Origin: Hondaea fermentalgiana
Taxonomy: Eukaryota > Sar > Bigyra > Thraustochytrida > Thraustochytriidae
DNA length: 64,000 nt
NCBI GenBank assembly: GCA_014084085.1
Contig: NPFB01000005.1
Span: 124,001 to 188,000 of the forward strand
Reading direction: 5' to 3'
A model generated the notes under the pieces. That model did no database searches and was not told where the DNA came from. It worked only from the letters and a program-made list of their open reading frames with translations. The translations under genes and the position numbers were made by a program. Positions 31,201-64,000 of the stretch are shown piece by piece (positions within the stretch are counted from its first letter, which is position 1; each line of letters begins with the position of its first letter).

Positions 31201-32107
31201 AATCGTTAAGAACGAAGCGATGCATTCTGAAGAAGAAGAGGGCACGGCGGTCGAGCAAATAGACAAAGAGAGCCAGAGCCGCAAGCGCGAGCACCAAGAG
31301 CATCACGAGCAAAGGCTCGAGGAGGATCACGGGCATGAGAAATGCCAGAGCGAGCGCGATGGCCCAGCGAGGCGCCGAGCGGACCGTCTCGCGGGCTGTT
31401 CGCATGGCGTACTCGAGCATGTTTCGGGGCGAGATGGTGTTTTCGTCGTTGATGAGGACGAGGCAGTCGACAATGCTTCGTTTCGTCTCCCATAACGCCT
31501 CAGAGGCAAGAAAGGCGTAGAGGAAAACACCAATGTAAGATTCAAAGAGAACGTAGTTGAAGTACACGAGTCCAAGAATGCCGAGCGTGAAGAGGTTTCC
31601 GAGGATGATGCTGACGACGCGGTCTTTTTGCCTCCGTACGAGGTCTTCGGCGCCGTAATAGTCGTACGCCGAGGGGCCCAAGAAGGCCCCCTCGCCCTCT
31701 GACCCTGAGCTGTAGGCAGAGAGGTCACCTCCGGCGGCGACGGCGTTGGCCACCGCCATACCTCCGCCGCTGCGAGGAGACAACTTGCTCAGATCCGACG
31801 CATACGAGCTCGTGCGACGGCCGGGCGCGCGTCTCCGCGACGCCGCCGCGCCCAGCCTCTGCAGCTGCTGCTGCGGCGGCGGCGGAGGCTCTGCGACCGC
31901 GGCCACCTCGCGCTCCTCGTCCTCGTCCTCGTCCTCGCCCTCGTCGTCGACGGCCGCCGCCCTGCGCGCCTTGGCCATCTCCGCGGCCTCGCGCAGCGCG
32001 CGGCTCGGGCCGGCCTCGCGCGTCTCCGCCGCGGTCCCCGCCGCGGTCTCCGCCGCGGTCTCCGCCGCGGTCTCCGCCGCGGCGGCGCCCTCGTCGGCGG
32101 CCTTCAT
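28292..32107 (-). CDS. TMEM245 / AI-2E-transporter-family multispanning membrane protein (5' end uncertain)
   Basis: About 1271 aa if it starts at the ATG at 32107; the frame continues into the 100-N gap, so the true N-terminus may be further up. The N-terminal ~130 residues are low-complexity (repeated Ala-Glu-Thr, acidic, Pro/Gln). Then hydrophobic helices (IILGNLFTLGILGLVYFNYV, IALALAFLMPVILLEPLLVML, FVALVLILFILVLGVVCTTLF) and, after a luminal loop with several Asn-x-Ser/Thr sites, a second membrane block with the AI-2E-type signature (LPYLAALFTIALTLFPVVYAY, then AFGAHGVILGPLLVCLG). The last ~400 residues are Ser/Arg/Asp-rich and disordered, ending in a SHOCT-like helix pair (LRAQVMLEKKLIKKEQYDEF). 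Substrate unknown. Divergent from the IQ/WW gene across the gap. Confidence 0.8.
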   Translation of the reverse strand: MKAADEGAAAAETAAETAAETAAGTAAETREAGPSRALREAAEMAKARRAAAVDDEGEDEDEDEEREVAAVAEPPPPPQQQLQRLGAAASRRRAPGRRTSSYASDLSKLSPRSGGGMAVANAVAAGGDLSAYSSGSEGEGAFLGPSAYDYYGAEDLVRRQKDRVVSIILGNLFTLGILGLVYFNYVLFESYIGVFLYAFLASEALWETKRSIVDCLVLINDENTISPRNMLEYAMRTARETVRSAPRWAIALALAFLMPVILLEPLLVMLLVLALAALALFVYLLDRRALFFFRMHRFVLNDSTFVALVLILFILVLGVVCTTLFVVFAFHDVKVMLQMIQAWAGETLMNSRWAQDVWNEVSGHGENALDAWLGDFEHQYVTNTTWEPAFRWVVRFMEETRLAATNDTSAPNATCLASNASSLSGQAATAACSLSAAEASLFGAPASQGAVSMDDTFLMADGWFSIPDWMQNRSLQEILQMVAEHTKSTDLSGVTDKVRDVALSARDGFWTSTIFTMSVLFLVIDFGVRVMFFVTITFILLSSEDNLMHEVLTGIFSSEAQDATPTDPVPAGGNAFVSASEPLSATGSAPAPAASPARAGGPPGPPPSHQRRSAFVERIIAVASSTSESSRSVAECEDDPALPMDDEDLDADSELGTLSPSAGPVAESSIAPEERASDIYLLEQQLRATMEAVVMLTVKMSFYRATATLVLFKIMGIQLPYLAALFTIALTLFPVVYAYWACLPWCLIFALNGHWYLSLLLFSLQYILSFQLDSWVLGTFQKKVQQPSTREHADQSKNEFMTGMSMFFGVTAFGAHGVILGPLLVCLGIVSYNTLKNTQQSVRGIQPLSGTNSLTSSLTLGSASGTVGSLGPGTNAPANFPIHHSIQRTWSTDTPASRPSRRRRNRGHRRSDSETHLSSRKLRPHGAYPFGAGTTLPDEADNGGAANDTGHGTMTRSPSETSHWDAKADAEPVFGLATGNAGEANTLNVSRGRRHSDYEGSSLSTASSTSSFCAVKSFDTPRDAEADTGGYREDNDRDEDQGEDAEVMRHSRAQAALERQRKANEDEETEGHHQRRSSEPTVRNFLNFDSDDATEGERRSSSRQGYERGKKRPRHRDSGRERILRGTDVTQGRRSFGGFPTRTAPLAHTSSFRQAGRSARLRRHHTASGETSLIDSFLGTVINATTTRNRPPSGGTLQEMLSRRGDNSSKMNGGGMGVGGGGGVGGGSRRRLAPSPEERLLRAQVMLEKKLIKKEQYDEFAEKMLAELSGA

Positions 32108-32181
32108 GCTCGTTTGCGGTCTGTCGCACCCGGCGGCTCCACGATGATCACCCTCATCATCATCATCATCATCATCATCGT
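32025..32181. repeat. GCCGCGGTCTCC repeats and (ATC)n run beside the gap
   Basis: Tandem 12-bp units (about 32025-32085) encode the Ala-Glu-Thr-Ala repeats of the TMEM245-like protein. An (ATC)n run at about 32153-32179 would encode poly-Asp upstream of the chosen start if that part is translated. Confidence 0.8.
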
Positions 32182-32206
32182 CGTCCCGGCCCCGCGGCCG
32201 CCCCGC

Positions 32207-32306
32207 NNNNNNNNNNNNNNNNNNNNNNNNNNNNNNNNNNNNNNNNNNNNNNNNNNNNNNNNNNNNNNNNNNNNNNNNNNNNNNNNNNNNNNNNNNNNNN
32301 NNNNNN
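32207..32306. other. Scaffold gap (100 N)
   Basis: Conventional 100-N gap. It lies in the shared upstream region of two divergent genes, so both N-termini and the promoter are uncertain. Confidence 0.98.
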
Positions 32307-32315
32307 TATGCTACC

Positions 32316-35123: not shown

Positions 35124-36947
35124 GCGCACCAGCCAGTCTGCACATTTGTAGAGAACCTATACGAGAACACACTGTGTCTTTTTCTCCCTTCACCGCTCTT
35201 TTTTTTTTCTTTCTTCTTGTAGGAACAAAAGACCCCCCCTCTGTATTGTTGTGCAGCCAGCTGTGACGCTCAAGAGTGTCCAGAAAAATAATAACAGTGC
35301 AGAAGAAGGCCTGGACCAACCACCACCCATGCCGTTTTGCTCATGAGCTGCACATCGTCATTTCCATTCGCTCGCCTCCTTTATCCATCGCGGCGGCAAG
35401 CAAAACCCGCACCTCTTGATTGGCACCGCCACCGCGCCGCTGATGCTGCCGCCATACTCCCGGCAGCGCCGAGACTCGCAACGCAGCAGCAGCAGCAGCA
35501 GCAGCAGCCAGCCATGGCCAGAGCACCAACACGTATGACCTGCGGCTGTCCCGGGGTCATACTCAGGTCCCACTGGTGGCACGCCTTCCCTAGAGACACT
35601 TGCAAGGCGGGCCACAGCACGCGACCGTCGCTTCACAGTCAATCGGAGCACACGAGAAGAAGAGGACGGCGATCGCTGCATGCTGCAGCCTCGCGCGTTC
35701 GTCGAGGAGGGCCGAGAGGAGAGGGAGGGAAGAAAGAGGGAGGAGACGGCTCCGCGCGGCGTGAGAAAGCGCGGTGGGCGACGCACAGCGGCGCCAATTC
35801 AGAGGTCGGAGCTGTCCGTGCAGCATGCGCAGCTGCAGTAGCAGAGCGAGGGGAGGGAAGGGAAAGGTTGCTCATCATGCTAAGGACGTAGGTCGCCTCT
35901 TGGACGCTGACGCGTGCAATGATTCGGCCTTTTTGCCGCGACGTTGCAGCGCTCGCAAGACAGGTAGGCAGGCGGCAGGCGAGCAAGCACTCACAGTCAA
36001 ACATTCACCAGCAAGTAAGCACAGCACAAGCTCGTCTACAACTGCCAACTGCGCTTAGAAAGAAGCAGCGAGAGGGCCGCCATGTTGTTTCTCTGATTGT
36101 GAGTGGCGCTCCGTGATTGGTGGGGGCCGCATCGAGCGGCCTGTAGGCGACGGACAAAGCGCTAGAAGGGCGCTAGGACGTCCTGCGGATCCTCGGGGCC
36201 CGCATCACGTGTTGCCCCCGGCAAGGAGAAAAGGGCTGGCTCACCTTGCTCACCATCGGTCTGGATAGAAGCGACATCGGCACGCGCACAGCGCAGAGAA
36301 GCGCAGACAAACAGCCGAGCGAGGGGAGACGGCCTCCGCCTTCGCGCGAGCGAGACGGTCGCGGCGCGTCTCCGCCTGTCGCGCGAGTTGCGCGACGAGC
36401 GAGCGGGCGAGCGAGCGGGCGAGCGAGCGAGCTCTGGCCCGCGTGGCTTTCCCCAGCCAGCGCGTGCGAAGTGGCGAGCAGACCGACTCGCCAGATAGTG
36501 GGAAGGCAGGCTGACTCGCTGGACGGCGACGCCACTGACGCTCGCGAGTGAGAATCCAAGCAAGGACGCCGGCTTCCGCGCAGACCTTTGTTGGCCCCTC
36601 GCTGATCAAGGCGTGCCGGCCGCGAGGTGGGCGCGCGGAGTCGCGCAGCTCTGGCCGCTACGCGCAAGAGCCGGGTGCCAGCTGCGGCGTGAACCCGCGG
36701 CCCCGGCGAACGCGCAGAGCGCAGTTAGGCCACGACGAGCAAAGCCTCAGGTCAGTAAGGTCGTGGCGAGCTCGTCTGCTGTCCTTCTATCCGCGAGGGC
36801 GCGGGCGAGCAAACACATTGTCTTCAGCTGGTCATTGCAAACGCGAGAATGCCAGCAGCAGCATCACCAAGAGCAGCATGCGCCGCTGGCGTCTGCAAAC
36901 GCTATAGTTACCGTGGCGAACAATCTCTACAAACCTGGCGCTCCGTG
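35124..36947. other. Intergenic region with CAG and GAGC/GGGC repeats
   Basis: About 1.8 kb between two + strand genes. It has a poly-T/C stretch after the IQ/WW gene (about 35190-35240), a (CAG)n run (35484-35512), a GAGCGGGC repeat (36396-36433) and otherwise GC-rich DNA whose ORFs look like chance. An in-frame ATG at 36849 could extend the sulfatase. Confidence 0.5.
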
Positions 36948-39341
36948 ATGCAGAACGTGGCGATCTTGTTGGTGGTCTTCTTCATGGTCACCACCAACGG
37001 AGGCGCCGTGTCAACAGGACTCCTTAATGCAGACGTCCAGCAAACTCTTTTGCCAAGGTCTTTAAGCAATGATTGCAGCAGCTCCAAGGTGTCGCAGTGC
37101 AAGAGAAAATGTGGCTGGAAACGAAATGACGAGAGACGCGTGGACGCATCATGCGCGATTGGTGACGCCTACGAGGTGCACAGGAAAAAGACCAGCGACT
37201 GTCTGCAGTCCTGCGAAGATGATGACACATGCACGTATGTAGAAACGTGGACTGTGCGTGGCAATGGTAAATTGCACTGTCAGTTGTACTCGTGCTCAAC
37301 GCTAAGCGGCGACTTGTGGCGCTCCATTAATAAGCTGCGCAAGTTCTTTTCATACTCTATTGATTGTCCTGGCCGGGAAGACGGCACCGTCGATGGGCAA
37401 GACAGTGGCGATGAAGACGAAGACGATTATACCGGTGAAGGCACAGACGAGGACACAGACGCAGATGAGGACGAAGACGAGGATGAGGATGAGGATGACT
37501 TGACCAATGTCGACTCGTGTGGGCTCGACGCGGCTGACGAAGACACCTCCAGCGTGTGGGGGTCCACAGCGTCCAAGAATGCAGTCACATCGCCGGTTTC
37601 GGCTGTCGCCTGGAAAACGTCGGTAAATCTGGCTAAAATCGTGGTCAAGGGTACGGAGCTGCCCCCCGCAAGCAACCTCGGCATCGACACGTCAAATAGT
37701 CTGCATGGCAGGCGACCAAATCTTTTGCTCATTCTTGCTGACGATCTGGGAATTGGTGATACGGGCGTGGACCAATTCAATGGCAACTATGAGAAGCTCA
37801 ACACAATCTCGACACCACACCTTCAAAAGATGGCCAACAAAGGTGTGGTCTTTACGCAAGCGTACTCCGTCAATGCCGTCTGTCTCCCGAGCCGGTACTC
37901 GATGCTGGTCGGACGTCACGCAGGACATTCGCGAGTGCGCGGAAACTCGGGTACGAGCAGTGACATTCCGTTTACGACCGATGAGGTCACGCTGGCATCA
38001 GTCCTACAGGGCACAGGGTACAAGACTGCCTTGATTGGCAAGTGGGGCCTCGGCAAGAAGAGCGAGAAATCGCACCCAATCCAAAAGGGTTTCGACTACT
38101 TTTACGGTCAGCTCACGCACAAGGATGCACATGCATGTTTCCCTGTGAAGATGCACAACAACTCGGCCGACGCGTCAGACAACGCAGGCAAGTACGCCAA
38201 GTCGGAGCTCTTTCCCGAGAACAAAGATGCGTCCAAGAGCACGTGCTCGGGTCTTGAAAGCCCCCTGTATGCATCGGGAGACACCCCCTGCAGCTTTGTG
38301 CAGGACGTCTTTGCCAACAAGGCGCTCGAGTACATGGAGAACCACGTGTCACAGTACTCGGATGGAAGTGGCGGATTGACGACGCCATTTTTCGTGTACC
38401 TGTCGCTCACCGTCCCGCATATTTGCTCGTGGAGCCACAACCCCAACGACGAACAGCGCAAGGTCGCACCGTACATGGACCCTGACTGCCTTGAGAACCT
38501 TGTGTGGGCTTCCAATGAGGGAGATTCGGAACGCGGCATTGATACGGAAGAGTGCCGACACAAGAGTCTCATGGAGAACTACATTGATCGCGACATCGGA
38601 CGTATCATGGACTTGATTGACAGTTACGACGAGCTCAAGAACACACTGGTCGTCTTTGTCGGTGACAACGGTCCAGAACGGAATGCGAACTACGTAAACG
38701 ACAACTCCGTATACAATCGCCAGAATAATTTCAAGGTGCTTCACAGCATCTTTACCTTTGGGTCAACGAACGGGCACCGTGGAATCAAGCGCCAACTGTA
38801 CGAGGGCTCGCTGCTGACTCCAATGATCTGGTACTGGAAGGGGGTGACCTCTGGCCATGTTTCGCAGACGCCGACGACGACGGCGGATATTTTCAGCACC
38901 TTTGCCGACGTCGCCGGTTTGACTTCGAGCGACCTGGAGGTCGATGGATCGGCTGGAATCACACGGCCTTTGGACTCGATCAGTCTAGTGTCGTCGCTTT
39001 CTGGCAACGACGACGATCAGGTTTTGCACAGATACCTTTACTTTGAGTACTGCGACCAGCAGTCAGACAACTGGAAGTCCATCAAGTCTGACGCGGACTC
39101 ATACTGCTCTTGGTCTTTGCTGATTCGCAACTGGAAACTCATTTATGACTTTGAGTCGGAGGAGATGGAGCTCTTCGACATCACCAACGACCCTTTTGAG
39201 GAGGACAACCTCTACGTTACGGCCAACAACGCCAACGAGTCCACGAAGACGGCTACGCTGTACCAGCAGCAGGCCACGATGGAGTGCGTTAAGGCTGCTG
39301 AGGCGTACATTTCTCTCACAGATGCCGGTTTCTCCCCCTAG
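36948..39341 (+). CDS. Secreted type I sulfatase with Cys-rich N-terminal domain and acidic linker
   Basis: Hydrolyses sulfate esters after conversion of an active-site Cys to formylglycine. The 797-aa protein starts with a signal peptide (MQNVAILLVVFFMVTTNGG), which is why 36948 is preferred over an in-frame ATG at 36849. A Cys-rich, PAN/apple-like domain follows (about 40-140; eight or more Cys), then an Asp/Glu linker (about 146-185). The catalytic domain begins RPNLLLILADDLGIGDTG (metal-binding Asp pair) with the modification site CLPSR at C312 (CxPSR type) followed by MLVGRHAGH. Further sulfatase motifs are LIGKWGLG and FVGDNGPE. Substrate unknown; an extracellular or wall polysaccharide is a guess from the secretion signal. 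Confidence 0.88.
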   Translation: MQNVAILLVVFFMVTTNGGAVSTGLLNADVQQTLLPRSLSNDCSSSKVSQCKRKCGWKRNDERRVDASCAIGDAYEVHRKKTSDCLQSCEDDDTCTYVETWTVRGNGKLHCQLYSCSTLSGDLWRSINKLRKFFSYSIDCPGREDGTVDGQDSGDEDEDDYTGEGTDEDTDADEDEDEDEDEDDLTNVDSCGLDAADEDTSSVWGSTASKNAVTSPVSAVAWKTSVNLAKIVVKGTELPPASNLGIDTSNSLHGRRPNLLLILADDLGIGDTGVDQFNGNYEKLNTISTPHLQKMANKGVVFTQAYSVNAVCLPSRYSMLVGRHAGHSRVRGNSGTSSDIPFTTDEVTLASVLQGTGYKTALIGKWGLGKKSEKSHPIQKGFDYFYGQLTHKDAHACFPVKMHNNSADASDNAGKYAKSELFPENKDASKSTCSGLESPLYASGDTPCSFVQDVFANKALEYMENHVSQYSDGSGGLTTPFFVYLSLTVPHICSWSHNPNDEQRKVAPYMDPDCLENLVWASNEGDSERGIDTEECRHKSLMENYIDRDIGRIMDLIDSYDELKNTLVVFVGDNGPERNANYVNDNSVYNRQNNFKVLHSIFTFGSTNGHRGIKRQLYEGSLLTPMIWYWKGVTSGHVSQTPTTTADIFSTFADVAGLTSSDLEVDGSAGITRPLDSISLVSSLSGNDDDQVLHRYLYFEYCDQQSDNWKSIKSDADSYCSWSLLIRNWKLIYDFESEEMELFDITNDPFEEDNLYVTANNANESTKTATLYQQQATMECVKAAEAYISLTDAGFSP

Positions 39342-53000: not shown

Positions 53001-56000
53001 TTATGCGCGCGAGGGACCGGTCGTGAGGCGAGGGCTCAATCCGCGCTTGACGTACATTTCAACGAGCGTGCGCTTCTCCTTCTTGAGCATGGCCAAATAT
53101 GGGTGCATAACCGTCGCACCGCAGAGCCCATTGAGCTCCACAAAGAGAAAAGTGGCCGCCTTGCGCACACGAGGTTGTTCGTGGTCGAGGGACTCAATGA
53201 GGACCGGGTGGACTTCTGTCAAAAGATCAAGCACTGCTGGCGTTGGCAAACGCCGCAGTACGACACGAAGCATATCGATGCATGCATCCTGGGCGTCAAC
53301 CGTTGGATCGCCAAGGAACTGCAGCACAATCGGCAGCAAACGTTGCGGGTCGACCGATTCGGCAATATGTACGAGGGTCTCCTTGGCCTTGCACACGAGC
53401 GAGACGTCGACGTGCTGCCGCAGGAATGCCAAAATCGCGGGCACCATGCTGTCCAGCGAGCTCTGGAAGCCACGCGGGTGAAAGCGTGCGAGCGCAGAGA
53501 CCGTCAAGAACGCCTGCACAATGACGCTGCGTGTTGGGTCCTTGAGCTCGCCAGCGCAGGCTTGGGCCAACTGTGGCGCCCAGTGATCCCAAGCGATAGC
53601 GTGCGAAGAAGCAGAGTCCTTGGCCCATGCCTCGATCTGCTGCAGCGCCAGTTCTCGCTCACTCGCGCTGCCCATCTGAAGTCTCTGCATCACGTCCCGC
53701 AATTCCACGTCTGCATGATCTCGAAAACCTGTAGACTGCGCCGTCGCTGTCTGCGTCGACCCCCTGCTATCCATCTGTGGTGATCGTCGAGCAGCTTGCT
53801 GTGGTGAGCGTCGAGCAGCCTGCTGCGGCGAGACTTGAGCCGTCTGAGGCGAATGTCGAGCTACCTGGGGGCTTGTCTGCGCGCCAGCGCGCGTTTCCGG
53901 CGAAACGGGTGGCGATGCCGCGCCGAAAGTTTGGCCACTTGTTTCGTGCTCGGCAACGTCAAACTCGCCGCCGTCGACAATCTCCAAGTTTTCTTCTACG
54001 ATTGCCGTGGCATTCTCGTCCGAGATCGCCGTTGCATCGGAGCCAGCATCGTGCGCGTCTGCACTGCTGACCAATGTGTCAGCGCCACTCATCTCCGTCT
54101 CCATCGTTGCCGTTGACTTTGCAGGCGACAAGACCGGGTTCATGAGGGACAAGGACGCGGCATCAAAAGTTCCTTCTGTTTGGCGCCGGGGAGACTCGTG
54201 GGAAGGACGAGTCAAAAATGAAGCTCGCCGCGGGGGAAGTCCTGGCTTTACTGCCAAAGCTTCACCCTCCTCGTGCTGGTCTTTTTTCGTCGACAGAGGC
54301 GCGTCCCGCTCGTGAGAGATTGCGCTGCCCGACGAAAATCGCCTCGAGATTGACGCCCTTCTCGCCTGAGACTGGGCTGAAGGTGCGGCACTCGGGGCGC
54401 GCGGCTGGTGCAACAAGTGTTGGGAGGGCTGCGCGGGCGCGATGCGCGGTGCATCCTCGTGGGCGCGAAGGGCACTTTCGAAACCCTGGATGCTGTCCTT
54501 ACCAGCCTTGACGGCTCTCTCGCGCACATCGGATGGCATCTCACTCGAGCAGAGCTCCCCAAGAAAGAGGTTCGAGTCGTATCGGTACACCGCGACCAGG
54601 ACGGAGGTAGCGGCCTTCCGCATCTCGAGGTTTCGCGAAGAGAGGGATCGGTCCACGCGCCGGACAATTTGGTAGACGTGGAGCGAGTTTGCGAAGAATG
54701 CGCGAGTCGTTGGAATGACCTTTTGCAGATATGACATGGCCGCGAGTCGCTTCGAATCGCCCTTTTGTTTGCAGAGTTCACTGAGCATCGCGGCCAGCTG
54801 ATCGTGCGGGAAATTGGAAAGACAAAGATCCATGGCTTCCCCCGAGAACCTTCGAATGGGCAGCTTTCCATCCTTGGTGCCCGCCAAGAGCGCCGGCAAG
54901 AGCTGCTTGAGATAGTCGCTGAATTCCTTGGCGTGTTTGGGAAGCATGAGGCAAATGCATTTGAGGACTTCCTGAGCCACCTTGTGGTGTCTCCGTTCAT
55001 CGGCAGCCTTGTTGCAAAGCGCAGGGATGAGCTTTGCCGCGAATGCGGAAGAGAATCCATTCGGGCTCTCGATCAGCGCGTTCATGATGGCATCAACAGC
55101 ATCCTTTCGAGCAGACCAGTGCGGGTTGCTCTCGAGTTCGCGGAGATTCGCGTTGAGAGAAGCCGGGGTGGCCTCGGCGCCTGCATCCTGGACACTCGAC
55201 GCATAGTTGGCTGCAGCAGCAGAGCTCAAGGTTTTGGGGTTGCCGAGCACGTCGTGCGAAGCGGTCACAGCTGCCGATCCCGTCGAACGCGCGGTTGCAT
55301 TCGAGGGACCCGGCTCAACTCGCATAGCAGAGCCGAGTGCTGTTCTACCATCCGCAGCATTACTTGCTGTTGCAGCTTGACCTGCGGTTGGTCCAGCTCG
55401 TATGGGGCGTGTCGCGATGCGCTGCGCGCCGCCAACGCGTCTTGCTCCTGCTTGCGCTGTTGCTGAAGTTCGTGTCGCGCGCCCCGCAAGAGAGGCTGTC
55501 GAAGCGCCTCCTGTCTCGGCGTAATCTCCGGGCTGATAAGTGCGCGTCTCGCGCGTTCTGAGTGGCGGAGACGGCTGCGTTTCGCCCATGTTCTCGGCGG
55601 CGGCTGGGGCTCGATGCACCCGCTGCGGGCCCGCGCGAAGAGGTCGGCCCGCTGCACGCGAGTTTGCTGCATTTGGAGCAGCTGGCGGGGATACCTGCTG
55701 CTGTGGGCGTTGCTGCTGCTGCTGTTGTTGCTGTTGCTGCTGATGGTGAAGACTCAGAGGCGCACGCTGGCGCACGGCAGGGGAGATGGGGCGGCGCGCG
55801 CTTGCGCCGCGGGATCCGTCGTTTGCGCCAGTCTCGACAGCAAGGTCGTCGCTCGTTTTAAATGACATCATCATGTCAGAGCGGAACGATCCGGCATCGG
55901 CCTCGCTGCCAGACTCGGAAGGCGTTTCAAGAGGACTGTGCGCGGCGGCCAAAACGTTGCCTGGAATATTGCTCGCTGGTACAAAGGAGTCGCGCGGAGA

Positions 56001-56960
56001 AGACCGCGCACGGACTCGAAAGTCGTCGCCGCGCTCCAGCTGAACATCTGTTTGTACATCGCGCAGACGGCGCTGCGATGCAGCGTCGAGACCTGCCATG
56101 ATTTGTTCGGCGATTTCCGGGCTTCGTGCACGTAGGACCCAGTAGCAGGCACGCGCAGCGCGACGCACGGCATCGTCTGCGTCATTAATTGCCGATTTAA
56201 CGGCCGCGCGAACCTCGGCCATGCGGCGATTGCCTGCAGTCTTACTCATCGAGGGCCAGCGCCGAAGAGCGAGGTCGATGTACTCGACGCACACTAGCCG
56301 GTGGTGCACAGCCTTGTCGCTGCAGCCTTCGCAGACACGCGAGAGAATTTTGCCCACGCCAAGAGGGGCAGCGCTCGATATAATGGCGCGAATGCAGCTA
56401 TCTGCAGCTTCGGAGATAACCTTGATTGACACGCACGTTTGTTTGAGACAGGCCTCCACGACTGCGTAGGCAAGGGAGGAGAAGCGAGGCGGCCACTTCA
56501 TGGTACCGCTGGCGATGCCTTCTGTCTGGTACGCGGCCGCAAGCGCGGCAAAGGTGCTGCATGCCTCCTTGACAATGACCGAGCGAAGTTCCTTGATTTG
56601 GTTCAGGAGCGGGTCCCGGAGACGGATGAGACATTCGAGGAACTCGTCGTACTTTGCGGCGCCGCGTTCTGCTGCCTTGCCGAGGCGCTGGAGCGCGGAT
56701 CCGCGGTCGGACCAGTCGGCGTCTTTCTTTTCGAGCACCTTGATGGCAAACTCGCATTCCCTTGCAAGTTCCCTCAAGTCGATCGTTGCCGCGTTTTCGT
56801 CATTCTCTCCGTGCTGCTGCTGTACAGCGACCTGTTTTTCAAGCACCGCGGGTTGCCGTCCTCCGTTCTTCTCGCGAAGCGGTTGTTGTTCGGGCTGTTG
56901 CTGGTGCTGGTGGTGCTGGGACCCGTGTAGGCCCAGCGTCGCTAAGTTTTCCTTGTCCAT
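53001..56960 (-). CDS. CLASP-family microtubule-associated protein (TOG domains)
   Basis: CLASPs bind microtubule plus ends and kinetochores and promote rescue and pausing. The 1319-aa protein has three helical TOG/HEAT regions: N-terminal at about 50-280 (KKDADWSDRGSALQRLGKAAERG, ELRSVIVKEACSTFAALAAA), middle at about 640-880 (NPHWSARKDAVDAIMNALIE, KDGKLPIRRFSGEAMDLCLS) and C-terminal at about 1130-1310 (ELALQQIEAWAKDSASS, RVRKAATFLFVELNGL, HPYLAMLKKEKRTLVEMYVK). Between them are basic Ser/Arg- and Gln-rich linkers typical of microtubule-binding regions, including a polyglutamine run near residue 500. Start 56960 (MDKENLATLG) is the first ATG; the frame upstream is open but has no nearby ATG. 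Confidence 0.85.
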   Translation of the reverse strand: MDKENLATLGLHGSQHHQHQQQPEQQPLREKNGGRQPAVLEKQVAVQQQHGENDENAATIDLRELARECEFAIKVLEKKDADWSDRGSALQRLGKAAERGAAKYDEFLECLIRLRDPLLNQIKELRSVIVKEACSTFAALAAAYQTEGIASGTMKWPPRFSSLAYAVVEACLKQTCVSIKVISEAADSCIRAIISSAAPLGVGKILSRVCEGCSDKAVHHRLVCVEYIDLALRRWPSMSKTAGNRRMAEVRAAVKSAINDADDAVRRAARACYWVLRARSPEIAEQIMAGLDAASQRRLRDVQTDVQLERGDDFRVRARSSPRDSFVPASNIPGNVLAAAHSPLETPSESGSEADAGSFRSDMMMSFKTSDDLAVETGANDGSRGASARRPISPAVRQRAPLSLHHQQQQQQQQQQQRPQQQVSPPAAPNAANSRAAGRPLRAGPQRVHRAPAAAENMGETQPSPPLRTRETRTYQPGDYAETGGASTASLAGRATRTSATAQAGARRVGGAQRIATRPIRAGPTAGQAATASNAADGRTALGSAMRVEPGPSNATARSTGSAAVTASHDVLGNPKTLSSAAAANYASSVQDAGAEATPASLNANLRELESNPHWSARKDAVDAIMNALIESPNGFSSAFAAKLIPALCNKAADERRHHKVAQEVLKCICLMLPKHAKEFSDYLKQLLPALLAGTKDGKLPIRRFSGEAMDLCLSNFPHDQLAAMLSELCKQKGDSKRLAAMSYLQKVIPTTRAFFANSLHVYQIVRRVDRSLSSRNLEMRKAATSVLVAVYRYDSNLFLGELCSSEMPSDVRERAVKAGKDSIQGFESALRAHEDAPRIAPAQPSQHLLHQPRAPSAAPSAQSQARRASISRRFSSGSAISHERDAPLSTKKDQHEEGEALAVKPGLPPRRASFLTRPSHESPRRQTEGTFDAASLSLMNPVLSPAKSTATMETEMSGADTLVSSADAHDAGSDATAISDENATAIVEENLEIVDGGEFDVAEHETSGQTFGAASPPVSPETRAGAQTSPQVARHSPQTAQVSPQQAARRSPQQAARRSPQMDSRGSTQTATAQSTGFRDHADVELRDVMQRLQMGSASERELALQQIEAWAKDSASSHAIAWDHWAPQLAQACAGELKDPTRSVIVQAFLTVSALARFHPRGFQSSLDSMVPAILAFLRQHVDVSLVCKAKETLVHIAESVDPQRLLPIVLQFLGDPTVDAQDACIDMLRVVLRRLPTPAVLDLLTEVHPVLIESLDHEQPRVRKAATFLFVELNGLCGATVMHPYLAMLKKEKRTLVEMYVKRGLSPRLTTGPSRA

Positions 56961-58302
56961 CGCGCCGCCAACCTTGCGGCCACCGTCGTCGCTGCTCTCC
57001 AGCGCGCTTCGCTGCCTTCGTTCGTCCGGTCGGTCGGTCGGTCCTCTAAAGCCCCGCGGCGCAGACTTTGCTCTCGCGCCTGCTGCTCGGCTCTCCTGCT
57101 CGTTTCGGGCTGCTCGGTGCTCCTGTGCTCTGCTTTTGCTCTTTGCTTTTGGCTTTTGCTGCCTCGTCTCGCCAGCCAGGTCCTGGCGGCCGACGGTTAT
57201 ACACATTCACGCTCTGCTCTGGAACTGGGGCCTATACCGCTAACACGTATACTGGCCTACTACTAGCAAGCTCCTTAAAAGATTAACATGGCCGCTGGAT
57301 GATGGGATGGCCGGGCGAGCTGCGAGGGAACGGCCACGACTGCATCGCATCGCATCGCATCGCGGCGTGCCGTTGCGATTGGTGACGGAGGACGAAGAGA
57401 CAGCTGCTTCTCGCTCGTGCAAGAGGCAGAAGACGCACGCTATCTTCTTGAACAAGATGCAGGGTACACATCATTTTGACGCGAGGGATTGAGGCTTATT
57501 TTTCTTCGGGAATGACGCCGGGATGCTCGAAAAGAGAGAGCGAGAGAGCGGGAGAGCTGGGAATGAAACGGCACGGCCTCGAGATGATCGACGAAATGGT
57601 CCGAGACATGCTGTAGCGTCTCCATCTTTTTCTAAATCAGCAGTCTCTGGCAGCTAGACTGCTCGCAACGTTTTTTTTCTTGTTCTCACCATTGTCGTCA
57701 TCACCATCTTCATCATCTTTTCCACCGTCATCGTCCTCTCGCCTTGCGCGTCACCCTCGTCTCCAAGATGATTTGCTCTCTTCCCCAGGGCTAGCGCACT
57801 CGGCTAGTACCCAGGCCTATTATCAGCAAGCCGCAGTGCAGGCGCTCTCGGGTTCCCCGAGGAAACGAACGCCTCCGCCTCGTGCCACAGTCGCAGCCTC
57901 CTCCTCCGCCTCCTCTCCTCCCTCTTTTCGGCACTCGAGCCGCGCCGGCATCCCGCGACGCCTCCACTCATGTCTCCCTCGCGTCCTCCAGCTGTCTCCC
58001 CGTCGCCTCGCTCGCCCTCGCCGCATCCCCTTCCCAGGGCCCGGAGTCGCGCTCTGGGCCCCGGAAATCCGGGCCCGGATGCGCTCGATTGCCGCGGGGA
58101 CGCCTGCCGCCGGTCCCCGGAGTCGCGACGCCTTCTCGCTCCCTCCCGCCCTGCGTCACGGCGGGGTCGCAGCAGCAGCAGAGCCTCGAGCCGAGGCCGC
58201 GCNNNNNNNNNNNNNNNNNNNNNNNNNNNNNNNNNNNNNNNNNNNNNNNNNNNNNNNNNNNNNNNNNNNNNNNNNNNNNNNNNNNNNNNNNNNNNNNNNN
58301 NN
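56961..58302. promoter_or_regulatory. Divergent upstream region (CLASP / SPRY-LRR-NEL gene) up to the gap
   Basis: Holds a (CATCG)n run (57342-57363), T-rich stretches (57668-57680) and GC-rich low-complexity DNA. On the + strand a frame without ATG runs from 57680 to an ATG at 58079 in frame with the next gene if the gap length were exact, so that gene's 5' exon may lie here or inside the gap. Confidence 0.45.
58203..58302. other. Scaffold gap (100 N)
   Basis: Conventional 100-N gap that cuts the N-terminus of the SPRY-LRR-NEL gene. Confidence 0.98.
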
Positions 58303-61300
58303 GCCGCCAAGGGTCCCTGGCGACGCAGCTGACGCGGACGAGGAGGGCCCAGACGAGAACCGCGCCGCGGAGAACCTCGAAGGCGACGCCAGCGCGAGCA
58401 GCGCGGGAAGACGCCGCGCGCGGAGCGCGGCGGTACCGCTGCGCGAGACCCCGGGTGAGCCCGCGGCGCTGGCGCAGCGAGATCGACGGCGTCGAGCAGC
58501 TGCACCGGCGGCAGGAGCAGGAGCGCCCGACCGCCGAACCGCCGCAACCGGTGATGGCAATCGCGCCACGAGCAGAACGAGCCTGTCGTCACGCCGCAGG
58601 GTGCGACGCAGCCGGCGCAATCATCGGAATGGTGCCACGCAGGCCGAGGGAGCCGCACACGAGGACGACGCTTCCTCGTGGGACCTCGTCGAACCGCAGT
58701 TCTTTGAAGCAGTCCGGGCGGCTGGCAAAAGCCGTTTAACAATCACGTCAGAACTCTGGCAAGATGTTCTCTTCAAGCACGAGGCTTTCCTGGCGCGCCT
58801 CCAGGAACGCAATGTCAGCGAAATCGACATTCGTGGCGCAGATATCAACGAGGACCTTGCAACACAACTTGTAGAGGTCGTCGGAAACAACCTGCAGCAC
58901 CTACGGTCCTGCCGCATCGAAGCGAGTAGACTTCCCGGACGCGGCCACGCCGGCGACTTTGTCGAAGCGCTTGGTTGCCATCGCTCCAAGCTCGAAACTT
59001 TGTCTCTTAAAGGAAGCGCCGTTCAGGAATGCGGCAAAGTATTTGCTTTTCGAGGCTCTATCTCTCACGACGAGGTCTCGGGCGTCATCGAATATGACTA
59101 TTGGTCCACCGTCCTTCTCAAGCACGTCGCGCTCAATTCTGGCCGATGGTTCTATGAAGTAGCCTTTGAACACCTTGCTAGCGGCGAATTCACGCAGATC
59201 GGCTGGGCAACGCCAGAGTTTACGTGTAACAGTTTTATCGATGGAGTGGGCGACGATGCCGAGAGCTGGGCCTTTGACACCGTCCGTCGATCCATATGGC
59301 ATGATGGGCAGGAAACAAATTGGGGAGAGCGCATGGAAGAAGGAGATACCCTTTGCTGCGTCGTAGACTTTGAGCGCGGGGAGCTGGCCTTTGGACGGAA
59401 TGGTTCCTTCGATGAGCCCTTTGGCGTCGCATTCGAAATTCCACGCGGAATCTCCTTGCGCCCTGCGCTCACCGCAGGGAAAAATATGCGGCTGGCTCTG
59501 AATGTGAGCGGCCCGCAATCCAACCCACACCAGGATGCTCTACCCATTTCAGAGTGGATCCGAGGCGAACACCGTCTCAGTACGCAATGGTTTGTAGGTA
59601 GCATTTGCCGACTTGCTGCGCGTAAAACGTTGCGGACCCTGGATCTATCAAACAACTACCTCGATGCAGCGTCTATTGCTCGAATCATTGCTGCGGCGCA
59701 GGCTCTTCCCATTGAGAGCCTCCTCCTTGCGGGCAACAATGCATCTCGCAAGTCTGCTCTGGCCGTTGCCTCGCTCCTCGCTGAGAATGGCACGCTACGT
59801 GTACTCGATCTCTCTCGAAACTGTCTCGGGCTCAAGCGTCGTCGTGTCTCGGTGTCGAGCCGTCGAGATGACAAAGATCTCAACGCAGAAGAAGATGATG
59901 AAGATCTCAACGCAGAAGAAGATGCCGAAGAACAAGGAGGAGTATTCGGCAGCGACGGAGGCAGCGGACCGGTCGGCCGTCTCGATGATCCGCGCGAGCA
60001 TCCCGTTTCCCATTACTTGTGCAACGCACTCGCTCACAATAGCACGCTGACGACTCTTTTGCTCGGCGACAACGCCCTCGATACATCGGAGACCAGCTCC
60101 ATCGCAGAGGCTATCGTGCACGGTGGCAGTGTCCGCACGCTGTCTCTTGCAGGCAATAAAGTCTCGTCGGTCACAGTGGCTTCGCTTCTTTCGAGTGAGT
60201 CTGCGCTGGAAGATCTCGATCTGTCTCGCATTGGTCTATCGGAACAAGGTGCCGGGGCAATGGATTTGCTTTCCATGTCAGCCCAAATTCGCCGCATCGT
60301 CCTCCGAGGAAACCCGCTGGTCACGCCTCCGCGGCGCAGTCGTTCGCGATCTAGCGTAATTCGTCCCACCAGAAGCAGTTCTGCCCGTGAAGCGGAAGCA
60401 AGATTCCGCTCAAGGTCCTCTGGGGCAGCCAAGGGACTTGCTGTTGCAGCGCACTCGCTCCTTCAAGTTCTCTCAAGGTCTTCCACGCTCGAAAGCGTGG
60501 ATCTCGGCAACACCGGTCTCGATTTTCGCTATACGGAGGATCTTGCGCGACTTGTCGTGGGTAACCCGGCTTTGGAAGTCCTTCGCATCGATAAGAACAT
60601 GCTCGAAAGCGAGTCAATGGAAACGCTCGCGCGCGCCCTCGAGACATCGAGTCTCCAGGAACTTGACGTCAGCGAGAACCCGATTGGCGCGGAAGCTTGC
60701 GCGCAAATGCTCTTTAGCGCCTCCAAACTCAACGTCTTTGTGGCTCGTATGTGCGAGATTGGGCTCGAGACCGCAGAGGAGGACTCCGTCGCGCTCACCG
60801 CGTTGACCAATGCCGTGCGGCAGCATGAGTCTCTTGTGTGTCTCAATATCGGCCAGAATGCCCTCCGATCGCCGCAAGTCGCAGCTCAACTTCTTGGAAG
60901 TGCAATTTGCGACAGCACATCCCTTAGGCGTGTGAACATGAGTGGAATGGGGTTTGGACTCGATGGCATTCGCGGTCTCGTGCAGGAACTGCAAGAATGT
61001 GGCGATCTGGATGAGCTCGATCTCTCCGAGAACGATGCTTCCTACAAGGGCATGCAAAATTTCATATCCTTTGCGCTTGATCGCCGGGCAACGGTGAAAG
61101 CGTTGAAACTGTCTGGAAATTCGCCAAGCGACGTACTTCCACATGTTCTCGAATCACTCGCAAGTCTCCCTTTTGGATCACGACTCTCACTGTTGCGTCG
61201 CATGATGCTCACCGTCCCGGAAGACCCAGGCCCACGTCTCGAAGCCTTTCTCGCGTCTTCGCTGGTATCCCGCCACTATGTGTGGACGCGCCGCGCGATG

Positions 61301-63103
61301 GACATCGCTGAGACGGACCTGTCCTCATTGTCGGATCTTTTGCGACGCATCCAGGTCGGTGTTGAACCCCACGCGGACTTGTGGACCGTGCGAAGCGGAC
61401 TCCACTTCCACAACGTTGAGCAGGACCTCATTCTCGACGAGAGTTTTCAAATTTTCGATGGAGAGTTGTGTTTCGACGATTGCCGAGGTGATATCTCAAT
61501 TCCAGAGAACTTGCATGTTGATGGCTTTCTCAATTTCATGCGATGCTCTGGCGAAGTGCTCATCGGCGCAGGGCTTCATGTTGACCAGGACGTAAGCATT
61601 GAGGAGGTTCCGCGTCTAACGACGTTGCCTGCAAACATGTATGTCGGTGGCGCCTTTTTTGCAATGGACTGCGACGAGCTCGGGGACTTTCCCGCGGACT
61701 TCGTCCAGGCGCCAGATCGCATGTTTGTCCTGCAGCGCTGTCCGAGCGTGGGATCTCTCCCAGACACGTTGGTGCAGACTCCGGGACGCATGATTCTCAT
61801 GAATACAGGAATTAGTTCGCGTGAGATCGTTCGTCTTCAAGGCATCTCGCACGAGGGAATGTCTGTTCGCAGCCCGTTTATGGGTGCGTTGTACATATTA
61901 CAGCCCGATTTTACCACGCTTCAGGCGGGTGTCAAATTTTGGGTAGGTCGCAGCAAATTACCAAACATCGCCATGGAAGGATTTGCACGCGAGGTGGATC
62001 AAGCGGTGGGCAGCTACTTTCGCACTAGCGTGACACAGTTTCTCTCAAAGCTGCGCATGGCCAAAGAGTTTCAGGAAGCGGGGCTGCGACAGGGTCTTGC
62101 ACGCCGCGTAGTCGAGGTTCTTCGCGCAGTCGTGGACGAAGTTGACGCACGAGATTCGTTACTGGTTCGTATAAGTGACAGCGTCGATGCTTGTGGAGAT
62201 AAGCCCATCTGGGCACTTAATCAGATGCAGGCCGTCATTGCAACTGCGCGCGCTCGCGGCGACCGCCAAGCTCTGCGCGAGCTTGGGCAAAGTATGATGC
62301 GTCTTGGAGTTGTGCACGAGCATGCTCGACGCAAAGTGTTGGCGCTTGAACGCGACAAGCAAGCTGAGCGCGAGCGTCGGGGAAGCTCTGGCTCCAGCTT
62401 ATCGGAGGAGAGCGAGGTCGACGAGATCTGTGTCTACCTTTTCTTTGAAATTGAGCTGCGCGAGCGGCTGGGGCTTACTGTCGCTGCCGAGAGCATGCTG
62501 TTTCCGAATTTTATTCCAATCTCGGCCGAGGAGCTGGACGCTGCGGCAAACGAGGCTTTGGCCGTCAGCGAAGAGGCCTTTGATCAATGGTTGGCCTCGT
62601 GGCCCGAATGGCAGCGACAGTTGCGCTTTGAGGTGGCCAAGGAGATGTCCTGGGCCTCCGTCCCGCTAGCTCACATTCCCAAGCGGGTGAGTCTAAGTCA
62701 AACTACCTTTCTCGGTGATCCATTGACGGAACCTGTTCTCCTGGGCAAGGCTGGGCCTTGGCAGCTCTCAGAGCTTTTGGACCGCTGGATCGAGACTGGG
62801 ATGGACTTTAATAACGTGTCCTGGGGGTTGGATGCTTTTGTCGAGGAGCTCGGCCGCTTAGAACCTGCGAGACGAGCGTCTTCACGCTCGTCATTGTCGA
62901 GCACGACGCGAGCTGGATTCCTCGCGTGGGATCCAGACCGTCGCGAGAGTGAATGGTCACAAGACAGCACACCGAGTCGACGCTCTTCAATCGGGGGCCG
63001 TGATCAACGTGGAGACTCCCTTGCCAAGGTTCCATCACGAACTTCTCTTTCAAGGTTGTACTTGCGCAGAAGTAGGGGCAAACAACATGACTCCGTGGAG
63101 TGA
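58303..63103 (+). CDS. SPRY-LRR protein with C-terminal NEL-type E3 ubiquitin ligase domain (5' end in gap)
   Basis: One uninterrupted frame of 1600 codons; no ATG precedes the conserved part after the gap, so the start is in or before the gap (58079 is a candidate). Order: basic/acidic linker; SPRY (B30.2) domain at 59045-59510 (WSTVLLKHVALNSGRWFYEV, DTLCCVVDFERGELAFGRNG); ribonuclease-inhibitor-type LRRs at about 59600-61190 (TLDLSNNYLDAASIARII and about ten more), broken by an acidic insert; a bacterial-style LRR at 61380-61850 (short units such as LTTLPANMYVGGAFF, CPSVGSLPDTLV); then a NEL-like domain at about 61980-62680. There the expected nucleophile is the Cys in DSVDACGDKP (codon 62192-62194), followed by MMRLGVVHEHARRKVL, VDEICVYLFFEIELRERLGL and FDQWLASWPEW. 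NEL ligases form a thioester with ubiquitin. A Ser/Arg tail follows. The ligase assignment is my reading of family landmarks, without a search. Confidence 0.8.
59874..59930 (+). repeat. Coding tandem repeat in acidic LRR insert
   Basis: GATCTCAACGCAGAAGAAGAT is present twice with a 27-bp period and encodes DLNAEEDDE then DLNAEEDAE. It sits between two LRR units as an acidic loop. Confidence 0.8.
61980..62680 (+). other. NEL-like catalytic domain within the SPRY-LRR gene
   Basis: All-helical C-terminal domain directly after the second LRR block. Landmarks in order: SYFRTSVTQFLSKLR, RRVVEVLRAVVDEVDARDSL, the Cys in DACGDKP, ALNQMQAV, QSMMRLGVVHEHARRKVLAL, VDEICVYLFFEIELRERLGL, then FDQWLASWPEW. 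Spacing and content follow the NEL fold of bacterial LRR-type ubiquitin ligases. Confidence 0.75.
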
Positions 63104-63523: not shown

Positions 63524-64000
63524 TTATATCAACATCTGTGACCGCTTTCCGAGGACGGAAGCTGCTGCCGCACCCATGCTTGATTGTTCGCGGCCCCCAA
63601 GATTGTTTGCATTTGGTGCTCCAAGGCCTGCTGTACCGGCGCTGGACAGCCCACGCGAAACTATCCCGGAAGAATGTACGACGCTCGCTCCATCCTCAAA
63701 ACCTTGGGCGCGCATGCCTCGTGCAATGACGTTAATCTTGACCGTGACAGTGCCTACCGACTCAACACGCGTCGTCTCTCGCCCCTCTGATTTGCTTACG
63801 AATCTTGAGTCGTAGAATTCAGGCTGCAGTCCACGGATCCAAGCTATGAATTGCTGAAAATAAGAACTGCACACCGGACGAAAGAGGCGCACCTTCCGCA
63901 CATAGGTGCCTGGGCGCGTTGGAATGTGTACTGATCCGTAACCACGAGCAACATCTCTGCCCAGGGCGTCAATCTTGAAGACACTGAGAACAAGCCGAGG
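63524..64000 (-). CDS. B9D1: B9 domain-containing protein 1 (B9D1), 3' part
   Basis: The frame enters from the right edge (63902-64000 reads PRLVLSVFKIDALGRDVARG, then YGSVHIPTRPGTY) and continues VRKVRLFRPVCSSYFQQFIAWIRGLQPEFYD..., GRETTRVESVGTVTVKINV and RGMRAQGFEDG. This is the second half of the B9 (C2-like) domain of B9D1, a component of the tectonic/MKS complex at the ciliary transition zone, where it helps gate entry to the cilium. The final ~45 residues form a Gly/Ala/Ser-rich tail. The N-terminal half lies outside the window. Its presence says the organism builds a flagellum with a canonical transition zone. Confidence 0.85.
   Translation of the reverse strand, partial: PRLVLSVFKIDALGRDVARGYGSVHIPTRPGTYVRKVRLFRPVCSSYFQQFIAWIRGLQPEFYDSRFVSKSEGRETTRVESVGTVTVKINVIARGMRAQGFEDGASVVHSSGIVSRGLSSAGTAGLGAPNANNLGGREQSSMGAAAASVLGKRSQMLI

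What the first reader, a model, noticed from the sequence alone, without database searches (positions are those of the whole stretch)
58303..63103. Eukaryotic protein carrying a bacterial-type NEL E3 ubiquitin ligase domain
The C-terminal ~230 residues show the order and spacing of NEL-domain landmarks: helical lead, Cys in DACGDKP, MRLGVVHEHARRKV, VDEICVYLFFEIELRERLGL, and a Trp-rich end. NEL ligases are known from LRR effectors that bacteria inject into host cells (IpaH/SspH/SlrP class and rhizobial or pseudomonad relatives). Here the domain is in one gap-free frame with SPRY and RI-type LRR domains and next to a normal eukaryotic gene (B9D1, no gap between). That points to ancient transfer and domestication, giving a eukaryotic E3 outside the RING/HECT/RBR classes, possibly an innate-immune or self-recognition receptor-ligase.
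Basis: partly seen in the sequence, partly recalled or inferred. Interest (0 to 1): 0.95.

Follow-up and report, generated by a model that had tools for sequence, protein, structure and literature searches.

The report
Protist family of bacterial-type ubiquitin ligases
A marine protist carries a family of genes in which a ubiquitin-attaching enzyme best known from bacterial effector proteins is joined to sensor-like domains, suggesting that a bacterial weapon was taken over and made a normal part of a eukaryotic cell.

Summary
Confirmed and extended. The ORF at 58304-63103 (+) carries a NEL E3 ligase domain (Pfam PF14496, E 4.4e-28; PDB relatives are IpaH/SspH/SlrP) in one frame with SPRY and LRRs, between eukaryotic CLASP and B9D1 genes. 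The genome is Hondaea fermentalgiana (thraustochytrid stramenopile); it has at least 13 NEL loci, with SPRY-LRR, LRR, SAM-LRR or ARM partners. With 26 further hits (20 without a name, one a transcript) there are 39 distinct rows. Catalytic CxD is invariant in 39 of 39 of these and 79 of 79 bacterial NELs compared. The 39 form one clade (100/100). Best reading: a domesticated, expanded family of Cys-dependent E3s whose SPRY/LRR/ARM parts choose substrates. My literature searches found no report of it.

The parts
58304..63103 (+). Open reading frame of the SPRY-LRR-NEL-tail protein downstream of the assembly gap (1599 aa, P0001; stop codon included); the frame continues upstream of the gap and the start codon is unknown
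   Evidence: GenBank-type model P0002 (2418 aa, named 'Ryanodine receptor 1') has the same NEL region (100%) but a different 5' part and a different 3' end after ..GGRDQ
58203..58302 (.). run of 100 N (assembly gap) inside the frame
59144..59506 (+). SPRY domain (residues 281-401)
   Evidence: Pfam PF00622, 1.1e-15
59624..61267 (+). RI-type LRR region with acidic and Ser/Arg-rich inserts (approximate limits, by eye)
   Evidence: Pfam LRR_1 26.6 bits over cut-off 20.6; LRR_6 and LRR_8 below cut-off; sequence
61379..61873 (+). second, short-unit LRR-like block directly before NEL (by eye; no Pfam match)
   Evidence: sequence; similar units by eye in paralogues and in the chlamydial P0035
61907..61942 (+). 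linker motif F.tL..av.FW between LRR and NEL
   Evidence: by eye (window protein, paralogues and P0035)
62030..62635 (+). NEL catalytic domain (residues 1243-1444)
   Evidence: Pfam PF14496, 4.4e-28; PDB NEL chains
62192..62194 (+). Cys1297, predicted catalytic nucleophile of the CxD motif
   Evidence: C in 39 of 39 eukaryotic-set rows and 79 of 79 bacterial rows; role from PMC9320238 (passages read)
62198..62200 (+). Asp1299 of CxD
   Evidence: D in 39 of 39 and 79 of 79 rows
62420..62422 (+). Asp1373, counterpart of IpaH9.8 Asp397 by alignment position (hand count on the Bradyrhizobium row)
   Evidence: D in 38 of 39 and 77 of 79 rows; PMC9320238
62711..62848 (+). U-box-like tail core (residues 1470-1515), shared with the chlamydial relative and not found in the other bacterial NEL loci compared
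   Evidence: not recognised individually in this protein
63527..64000 (-). B9D1-like gene (B9-C2 domain), neighbour, runs off the window
   Evidence: Pfam 8.3e-27
53004..57206 (-). CLASP-like TOG protein, neighbour
   Evidence: Pfam CLASP_N 4.1e-29

Best explanation
The locus encodes one member of a domesticated family of NEL-type E3 ubiquitin ligases in the thraustochytrid Hondaea fermentalgiana and its relatives. An LRR-NEL-tail gene was exchanged once between bacteria and the ancestor of these protists, most likely received from a protist-infecting chlamydia-like bacterium, and then duplicated to at least 13 copies that swapped their substrate-binding front ends (SPRY plus RI-type LRR here; LRR, SAM-LRR or ARM in others). 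Proposed working: the SPRY/LRR part binds a substrate; the NEL Cys1297 takes ubiquitin from the cell's own E2 as a thioester, with Asp1299 and Asp1373 as charged catalytic partners, and passes it to a substrate lysine; the U-box-like tail helps to hold the E2~ubiquitin near the NEL cysteine. Shown here: domain homology, conserved catalytic residues, the fusions, eukaryotic chromosomal context, one clade, and a transcript of a relative. Inferred: enzymatic activity, the role of the tail, substrate choice by SPRY/LRR, direction of transfer, and any defence function.
For: NEL E 4.4e-28 with SPRY and LRR in one frame; 12 NEL chains of the PDB matched; 13 loci in the genome, all over the curated cut-off; ARM+NEL, SAM+LRR+NEL and SPRY+LRR+NEL architectures; eukaryotic neighbours CLASP and B9D1 and GC of the NEL part (0.575, third positions 0.611) within the range of window genes; organism by 100% identity of the NEL region to a Hondaea protein; CxD invariant in 39 of 39 and 79 of 79 rows, Asp1373 in 38 of 39 and 77 of 79; the 39 rows one clade at 100/100; three apparent orthologues of the window gene with SPRY and NEL (P0003, P0004, P0005; 71, 58, 54% in NEL); a transcriptome member P0029; chlamydial P0035 scores 125 bits with the Hondaea NEL-tail profile, the next bacterial row 98, and joins the eukaryotes at 99/95; tail vs U-box profile P 8.8e-7, score 37.6 against at most 14.8 in 120 column shuffles.
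Against: No activity, structure or expression datum for this gene itself. The stem of the eukaryotic clade (2.29) and the P0035 branch (1.86) are long and the program warns of long-branch joining. Only one chlamydial sequence was found, so the direction of transfer is open; part of its lead in bits comes from the tail. Shigella and Salmonella NELs were left out of the trees and of the score comparison. The protein searches scored capped candidate lists. Pfam, NCBIfam and single-sequence PDB searches do not call the tail a U-box; the window protein's own tail scores -0.6 bits with the U-box profile; the PDB profile hits to E4B (E 0.57 and 0.96) are hardly better than the chance hits that follow (keratin 1.0, T-cadherin 1.4).
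Confidence: 0.82

Rival explanations
1. The genes are eukaryotic NEL relatives that have lost ligase activity and serve as LRR/SPRY scaffolds or decoys.
For: No activity data; a loop insertion of about 20 residues in the NEL of the window protein; paralogue N7 has CGDM instead of CxDK and Glu at the third position.
Against: Cys and Asp of CxD kept in 39 of 39 rows and Asp1373 in 38 of 39, although each Hondaea paralogue shares only 39-57% of NEL positions with its best match among the others; this is not expected without selection on catalysis.
Confidence: 0.1
2. Transfer ran the other way: the LRR-NEL-tail gene arose in, or was rebuilt by, the protists (for example by gaining a U-box), and the chlamydial symbiont took it up as an effector from a eukaryotic host.
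For: The eukaryotic set is far larger and more varied (39 rows) than the one chlamydial row; the tail resembles eukaryotic U-boxes; Chlamydiae hold many eukaryotic-type ubiquitin-system domains (PMC4209131, passages read).
Against: All other NELs found here are bacterial or on viral contigs; P0035 has the compact LRR-NEL layout with no Pfam SPRY, SAM or ARM match.
Confidence: 0.2
3. Bacterial contamination or a chimaeric assembly.
For: A 100-N gap lies in the frame; some related hits carry odd names or a Durusdinium label that look like contamination or fused gene models.
Against: No gap between SPRY, LRR, NEL and B9D1; 13 loci on contigs of 50 kb to 1.1 Mb with SPRY, ARM and SAM fusions; same fusion in relatives P0003, P0004, P0005; base composition like the neighbours.
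Confidence: 0.02
4. The C-terminal tail is not a U-box but an unrelated extension of NEL whose DPV...W..TG pattern resembles one by chance.
For: No single-sequence or Pfam support; PDB profile E-values 0.57 and 0.96 with chance hits close behind; U-box was the one family I set out to test, after noticing the pattern by eye.
Against: Profile P 8.8e-7; of 32 alignment windows the five that score above 16.7 all overlap the eukaryotic tail; the two best of 177635 PDB sequences are both E4B U-boxes, aligned without gaps over 45 and 43 positions; 14 of 40 single tails exceed the best of 400 shuffled tails.
Confidence: 0.28

Closest known systems
Bacterial NEL E3 ligases (IpaH/SspH/SlrP; rhizobial NopM; PF14496)
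   Same: Homologous catalytic domain with invariant CxD and the second Asp; LRR in front; C-terminal position.
   Different: Encoded in a eukaryotic genome as at least 13 loci; SPRY, SAM or ARM partners in some; extra U-box-like tail; mostly K-P-[IV]-W-A-L-N after CxD where bacterial rows mostly have R-[VI] or A-G types.
NEL-type protein P0035 of the Rhabdochlamydiaceae symbiont of Dictyostelium giganteum
   Same: Similar LRR unit and linker (by eye), NEL and tail; joins the eukaryotic clade.
   Different: Bacterial, single LRR-NEL-tail layout, 685 aa, 24% identical to the window segment used as query; long branch.
U-box E3/E4 proteins (E4B, UFD2 type)
   Same: Profile-level match of the tail over the U-box core.
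   Different: Remote, below Pfam detection, and attached to a Cys-type ligase domain.
RBR E3 ligases (analogy only)
   Same: If the tail binds E2, the logic is alike: a RING-type module beside a catalytic-Cys module (inference).
   Different: No sequence relation of NEL to RBR domains is claimed or was tested.
Klebsormidium NLR with a region called NEL-like (PMC7145615)
   Same: An earlier mention of NEL in a eukaryote (passages read).
   Different: There an LRR-type superfamily region ('ODAL') is said to be highly homologous to NEL; no catalytic CxD domain is described in the passages read.

Membership tests
NEL E3 ligases (PF14496) | Profile match over the curated cut-off | tested here: met
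   98.6 bits against cut-off 24 for the window protein; 13 of 13 loci over cut-off
NEL E3 ligases (PF14496) | Catalytic CxD motif | tested here: met
   39 of 39 rows
NEL E3 ligases (PF14496) | Second catalytic Asp (IpaH9.8 Asp397 position) | tested here: met
   38 of 39 rows Asp, one Glu; window protein has Asp1373
NEL E3 ligases (PF14496) | LRR domain before NEL | tested here: met
   An LRR family over its Pfam cut-off in 3 of 13 Hondaea proteins, the window protein among them (N2, N6, N8); LRR-like repeats by eye in 12 of 13; N3 has ARM instead
NEL E3 ligases (PF14496) | NEL fold with exposed catalytic Cys | not testable with these tools
   structure prediction switched off
NEL E3 ligases (PF14496) | Cys-dependent ubiquitin transfer | not testable with these tools
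   needs an assay
Bacterial type III effectors of the NEL family | Encoded by a bacterium and injected into host cells | tested here: not met
   Eukaryotic locus between CLASP and B9D1
U-box (PF04564) | Pfam match over cut-off | tested here: not met
   0 of 22 tails match PF04564 with the limit set at E 10, though HMMER's filters drop most weak matches
U-box (PF04564) | Profile-profile similarity over the U-box core | tested here: met
   hhalign probability 91.5%, P 8.8e-7 with 13 U-boxes; 38.5%, P 3.3e-4 with 7; controls
U-box (PF04564) | RING-type fold that binds E2 | not testable with these tools
   no structure or assay available
SPRY domain proteins | Pfam PF00622 over cut-off | tested here: met
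   58.3 bits, cut-off 26.3

The most novel reading that the evidence does not exclude
Thraustochytrids hold a eukaryotic class of cysteine E3 ligases, a NEL catalytic domain followed by a U-box-like E2-docking tail, descended from an effector of chlamydia-like endosymbionts and turned into a multigene SPRY/LRR/ARM receptor-ligase system that marks targets (possibly intracellular microbes or non-self proteins) with ubiquitin. It would be an E3 mechanism beside HECT, RBR and RCR, with RING-type and NEL-type modules in one chain.
Probability: 0.35. Interest if true: 0.93.

Novelty: new variant of a known kind. Interest (0 to 1): 0.84.

Why it matters
NEL ligases are described as bacterial effectors whose catalytic domain has no structural homology to eukaryotic E3s (PMC12506513, passages read; PMC9320238, passages read). 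A eukaryote that keeps at least 13 of them, with catalytic residues intact and new receptor-like front ends, would add a catalytic fold to the eukaryotic ubiquitin system and show an effector used by the other side. It makes open questions testable: how NELs bind E2, whether a U-box-like module can serve a NEL cysteine, and whether endosymbiotic Chlamydiae passed ubiquitin-system genes to protists or took them. Thraustochytrids are cultured, and a title in the listing reports gene disruption in Aurantiochytrium, so knock-outs look feasible.

Tried and rejected
Rejected: contamination or chimaera. Rejected as functional names: labels such as 'Ryanodine receptor 1', 'Tubulin beta chain' or 'Disease resistance protein TAO1' on these genes probably reflect SPRY or LRR matches or fused gene models (inference).

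Led nowhere or inconclusive: 18S search in the genome (machine busy; dropped because the species came from protein identity). Prp19 family PF08606 search (nothing rang anywhere, uninformative). Viral contigs with P0035 (3 stretches matched a pattern, none a relative). Plasmid and phage searches with P0035 named no chlamydial record among those listed or counted by name. Tail profile in 398 genomes of the phylum of the Paraburkholderia locus gave 0 of 398, but without a positive control, since that search is not accepted on the own genome. The PRP6 part of P0011 is 50-63% identical to Hondaea PRP6: not decisive on whether the hit labelled Durusdinium trenchii (P0022) and similarly named hits (P0005, P0011, P0019, organism cut off in the listing) are contaminants. 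The first hhalign of the tail against U-boxes used four U-boxes read on the wrong strand and scored 16.3; corrected. The first tree run with P0035 stopped on a label error and was shown. The gap count for the tail column is not by itself proof that bacterial NELs lack the tail, because the bacterial rows had been trimmed to the profile match; the search of their full frames with the tail profile is. PMC12221091 and PMC13345962 were searched by 'find' for related terms without a hit.

Rows dropped or left out: 6 Hondaea gene models that repeat genome loci (P0002, P0006, P0008, P0012, P0015, P0020) from 45 rows, leaving 39; 3 Salmonella loci of the 80 (the call itself kept 80 of 149 relatives), leaving 77 plus two rhizobial plasmid loci = 79; all 34 viral-contig loci; Shigella, Escherichia and Salmonella plasmid hits. 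Trees used 39 of 39 and 36 of 79 rows, then 23 of 39, 29 of 79 and P0035, thinned by hand for redundancy. P0034 and P0036 came later and are in no count.


Full report
WHAT IS THERE. The ORF on the + strand ends with the stop at 63101-63103 and is open from upstream of a 100-N assembly gap at 58203-58302. The start given in the finding, 58303, is the edge of that gap. The part downstream of the gap, 1599 residues (P0001), holds SPRY (residues 281-401, 1.1e-15), LRRs and a NEL domain (residues 1243-1444, 4.4e-28, 98.6 bits against a cut-off of 24). A PDB sequence search with 527 C-terminal residues returns 14 chains up to E 1: 12 are NEL proteins of the IpaH, SspH and SlrP group (9e-8 to 9.5e-6), two are chance hits at 0.23 and 0.24. 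The neighbours are a CLASP-like gene (53004-57206, -) and a B9D1-like gene (63527-64000, -), both ordinary eukaryotic genes. GC and third-position GC of the NEL part (0.575, 0.611) lie within the range of the other window genes measured.

WHICH ORGANISM. The NEL region is 100% identical to a protein of Hondaea fermentalgiana (P0002), a thraustochytrid labyrinthulomycete stramenopile. That model is 2418 aa and is named 'Ryanodine receptor 1', presumably for its SPRY domain; its 3' part after ..GGRDQ is not in this ORF, so it looks fused to a further gene (inference).

A FAMILY, NOT ONE GENE. In the 36-Mb genome the NEL profile finds 13 loci, all over the cut-off (80-109 bits), in open frames of 661 to 3546 aa; none of 14 control genomes rings. 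A further Hondaea protein, P0025, has no close counterpart in this assembly (its best match is 40% identical, and no match exceeds 49%), so 13 is a lower bound. Pfam scans of the 12 others show SPRY+LRR+NEL (N6), ARM+NEL without LRR (N3) and SAM+NEL (N4); in N5, N7, N9 and N12 Pfam lists NEL only, and their LRR-like repeats, like most in this family, are seen by eye. Three protein searches returned 13, 24 and 6 proteins, overlapping; two of them scored only the 8000 best candidates, so they are not exhaustive. After leaving out 6 models that repeat genome loci, 26 hits of the first two searches join the 13 loci to give 39 rows. Of these 26, P0025 is named Hondaea, P0022 Durusdinium trenchii, three more carry names with the organism cut off (P0005, P0011, P0019), P0029 is an MMETSP transcript, and 20 have no name. 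So at least one relative is transcribed. That the unnamed hits are labyrinthulomycetes is inferred from similarity. The window gene has three apparent orthologues with SPRY and NEL (P0003, P0004, P0005; 71, 58 and 54% in NEL).

CATALYTIC RESIDUES. In an alignment of these 39 rows and 79 bacterial rows, Cys1297 is C in 39 of 39 and 79 of 79, Asp1299 is D in 39 of 39 and 79 of 79, and Asp1373 is D in 38 of 39 and 77 of 79. The bacterial rows are two rhizobial plasmid loci and 77 of the 80 genome loci (3 Salmonella loci left out); by their labels all but one (a 'Mycobacterium') are Pseudomonadota. The review PMC9320238 (passages read) gives the CXD cysteine as the nucleophile and Asp339 and Asp397 of IpaH9.8 as important for activity; Asp1373 falls in the Asp397 place by hand count on the alignment. 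Elsewhere the eukaryotic NELs differ systematically from bacterial ones, for example mostly K-P-[IV]-W-A-L-N after CxD.

ONE CLADE. With all 39 rows and 36 of the 79 bacterial rows the eukaryotic set forms one side of a branch with 100/100 support and a stem of 2.29 changes per site. This fits a single exchange followed by long divergence and duplication; the long stem, and the program's long-branch warning, mean that the placing against the bacteria is weak.

THE TAIL. After NEL the eukaryotic rows have about 50-75 more residues with the pattern L.G...[DE]PV.....WSL.DLL.HWV.TG.D..N; the Pro of this pattern is kept in 38 of 39 rows, and N5 is degenerate. In one search that column is a gap in 79 of 79 bacterial rows, but these had been trimmed to the profile match; the better test is the tail profile against the full frames (150 aa or more) of the 79 loci, where the best bacterial score apart from P0035 is 4.1 bits (E 0.99). 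The spacing recalls a U-box. A profile of the 39 tails against 7 Hondaea U-boxes gave hhalign probability 38.5%, P 3.3e-4, score 25.2, with at most 15.8 in 40 column shuffles. Against 13 U-boxes (six more from PDB alignments) it gave probability 91.5%, P 8.8e-7 and score 37.6, with at most 14.8 in 120 column shuffles. Cutting the NEL alignment into 32 windows of 90 columns, the five eukaryotic windows that start at columns 200-280 and so overlap the tail (which begins at column 241) score 19.8 to 36.5; the other 27, among them one that starts inside the tail core, score at most 16.7. An open search of the tail profile against 177635 PDB sequences ranks two E4B U-boxes first and second, aligned without gaps, but at E 0.57 and 0.96, with chance hits at 1.0 and 1.4 behind them. 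Against this reading: Pfam and NCBIfam scans of 22 tails find no U-box, single tails are weak (14 of 40 exceed the best of 400 shuffled tails; the window's own tail scores -0.6 bits), and no structure could be predicted. I rate the U-box reading at about 0.7.

THE CHLAMYDIAL RELATIVE. The last profile search brought P0035, a 685-aa 'NEL-type E3 ubiquitin ligase domain-containing protein', on a 1.74-Mb contig, E 1.9e-32; the organism, cut off in the listing, reads 'Rhabdochlamydiaceae symbiont of Dictyos..', and the one taxon found for that beginning is the symbiont of Dictyostelium giganteum. It has a similar short LRR unit and F.tL.eAl.FW linker (by eye), CxD, and the tail. With the Hondaea NEL-tail profile it scores 125 bits and the next of the bacterial loci 98, part of the lead coming from the tail; with the tail profile alone it scores 16.7 bits (E 1.1e-4), the next row E 0.99. 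Shigella and Salmonella NELs were not part of this comparison; in tblastn and PDB searches they match at levels like the other bacterial NELs. In a tree of 23 of the 39 rows, 29 of the 79 bacterial rows and P0035, eukaryotes plus P0035 stand together at 99/95 and the eukaryotes alone at 100/98; the program warns that long branches meet. The shared tail speaks for the same grouping. P0035's own tail is not recognisable as a U-box. With one chlamydial sequence, transfer into the protists and transfer out of them cannot be told apart. Chlamydiae are known for expansions of ubiquitin-system genes; a search of PMC4209131 for NEL and IpaH found no mention, and I read passages only.

HOW IT MOST LIKELY WORKS. 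By homology the NEL cysteine takes ubiquitin from an E2 and passes it to a substrate lysine; in bacterial NELs productive transfer depends on bound substrate (PMC12506513, abstract and passages read). Here SPRY and LRR, or ARM in others, would choose substrates, and the tail could help to dock the E2. The repertoire of diverged front ends on one catalytic module resembles a recognition system, so a defence or self/non-self role is a fair guess, but nothing here tests it; ordinary protein turnover would give the same picture.

WHAT IS KNOWN. My paper searches (open-licence PMC papers only, seen as listings) showed no report of NEL ligases in stramenopiles. Mentions in connection with eukaryotes were a Klebsormidium NLR region called homologous to NEL (PMC7145615, passages read) and the use of PF14496 as one of many query profiles on Giardia (PMC7029713, passage read). 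Automatic annotation has named two relatives 'ipaH7.8' and 'SspH1' (P0005, P0019), so databases hold the match already.

VERDICT. It is larger than described (a family), possibly composite (NEL plus U-box-like tail), and its closest bacterial relative among those compared is chlamydial. Activity, structure, direction of transfer and biological role remain open.

Noticed in passing
58203-58302: A 100-N gap lies within the frame; the true start codon may be in or before it. Two orthologues begin MGVLQRLLC (P0003) and MGDRGAGLLGKLLC (P0005), and P0029 begins MGSK, which would suit N-terminal lipid anchoring; most other members listed do not begin so (by eye).
   Followed up: partly
L009 (G000:C172:620501-628900): Two NEL frames (882 and 975 aa) lie head to head about 660 bases apart with 49% NEL identity; N1 also has hydrophobic stretches near its N-terminus (by eye).
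   Followed up: no
L010:4034-7540: A NEL gene with ARM repeats instead of LRRs; P0022, labelled Durusdinium trenchii importin alpha-6, has ARM and NEL too plus a PF01984 C-terminus that may be a fused neighbour gene.
   Followed up: partly
G000:C30:55169-55981: A 716-aa frame that matches the LRR part of P0025 but is not among the 13 NEL loci, a possible front end without the ligase.
   Followed up: no
window 28295-32368 (-): 1358-aa frame with an AI-2E transporter-type domain just over the Pfam cut-off (34.6 against 34.3 bits).
   Followed up: no
window 36759-39338 (+): Sulfatase gene with SGSH-type C-terminus.
   Followed up: no
P0002 (existing model of this gene): Named 'Ryanodine receptor 1' and extended at the 3' end into sequence not in this ORF; other family members are named tubulin, LSm1 or plant disease resistance proteins, so the annotation needs correction.
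   Followed up: partly
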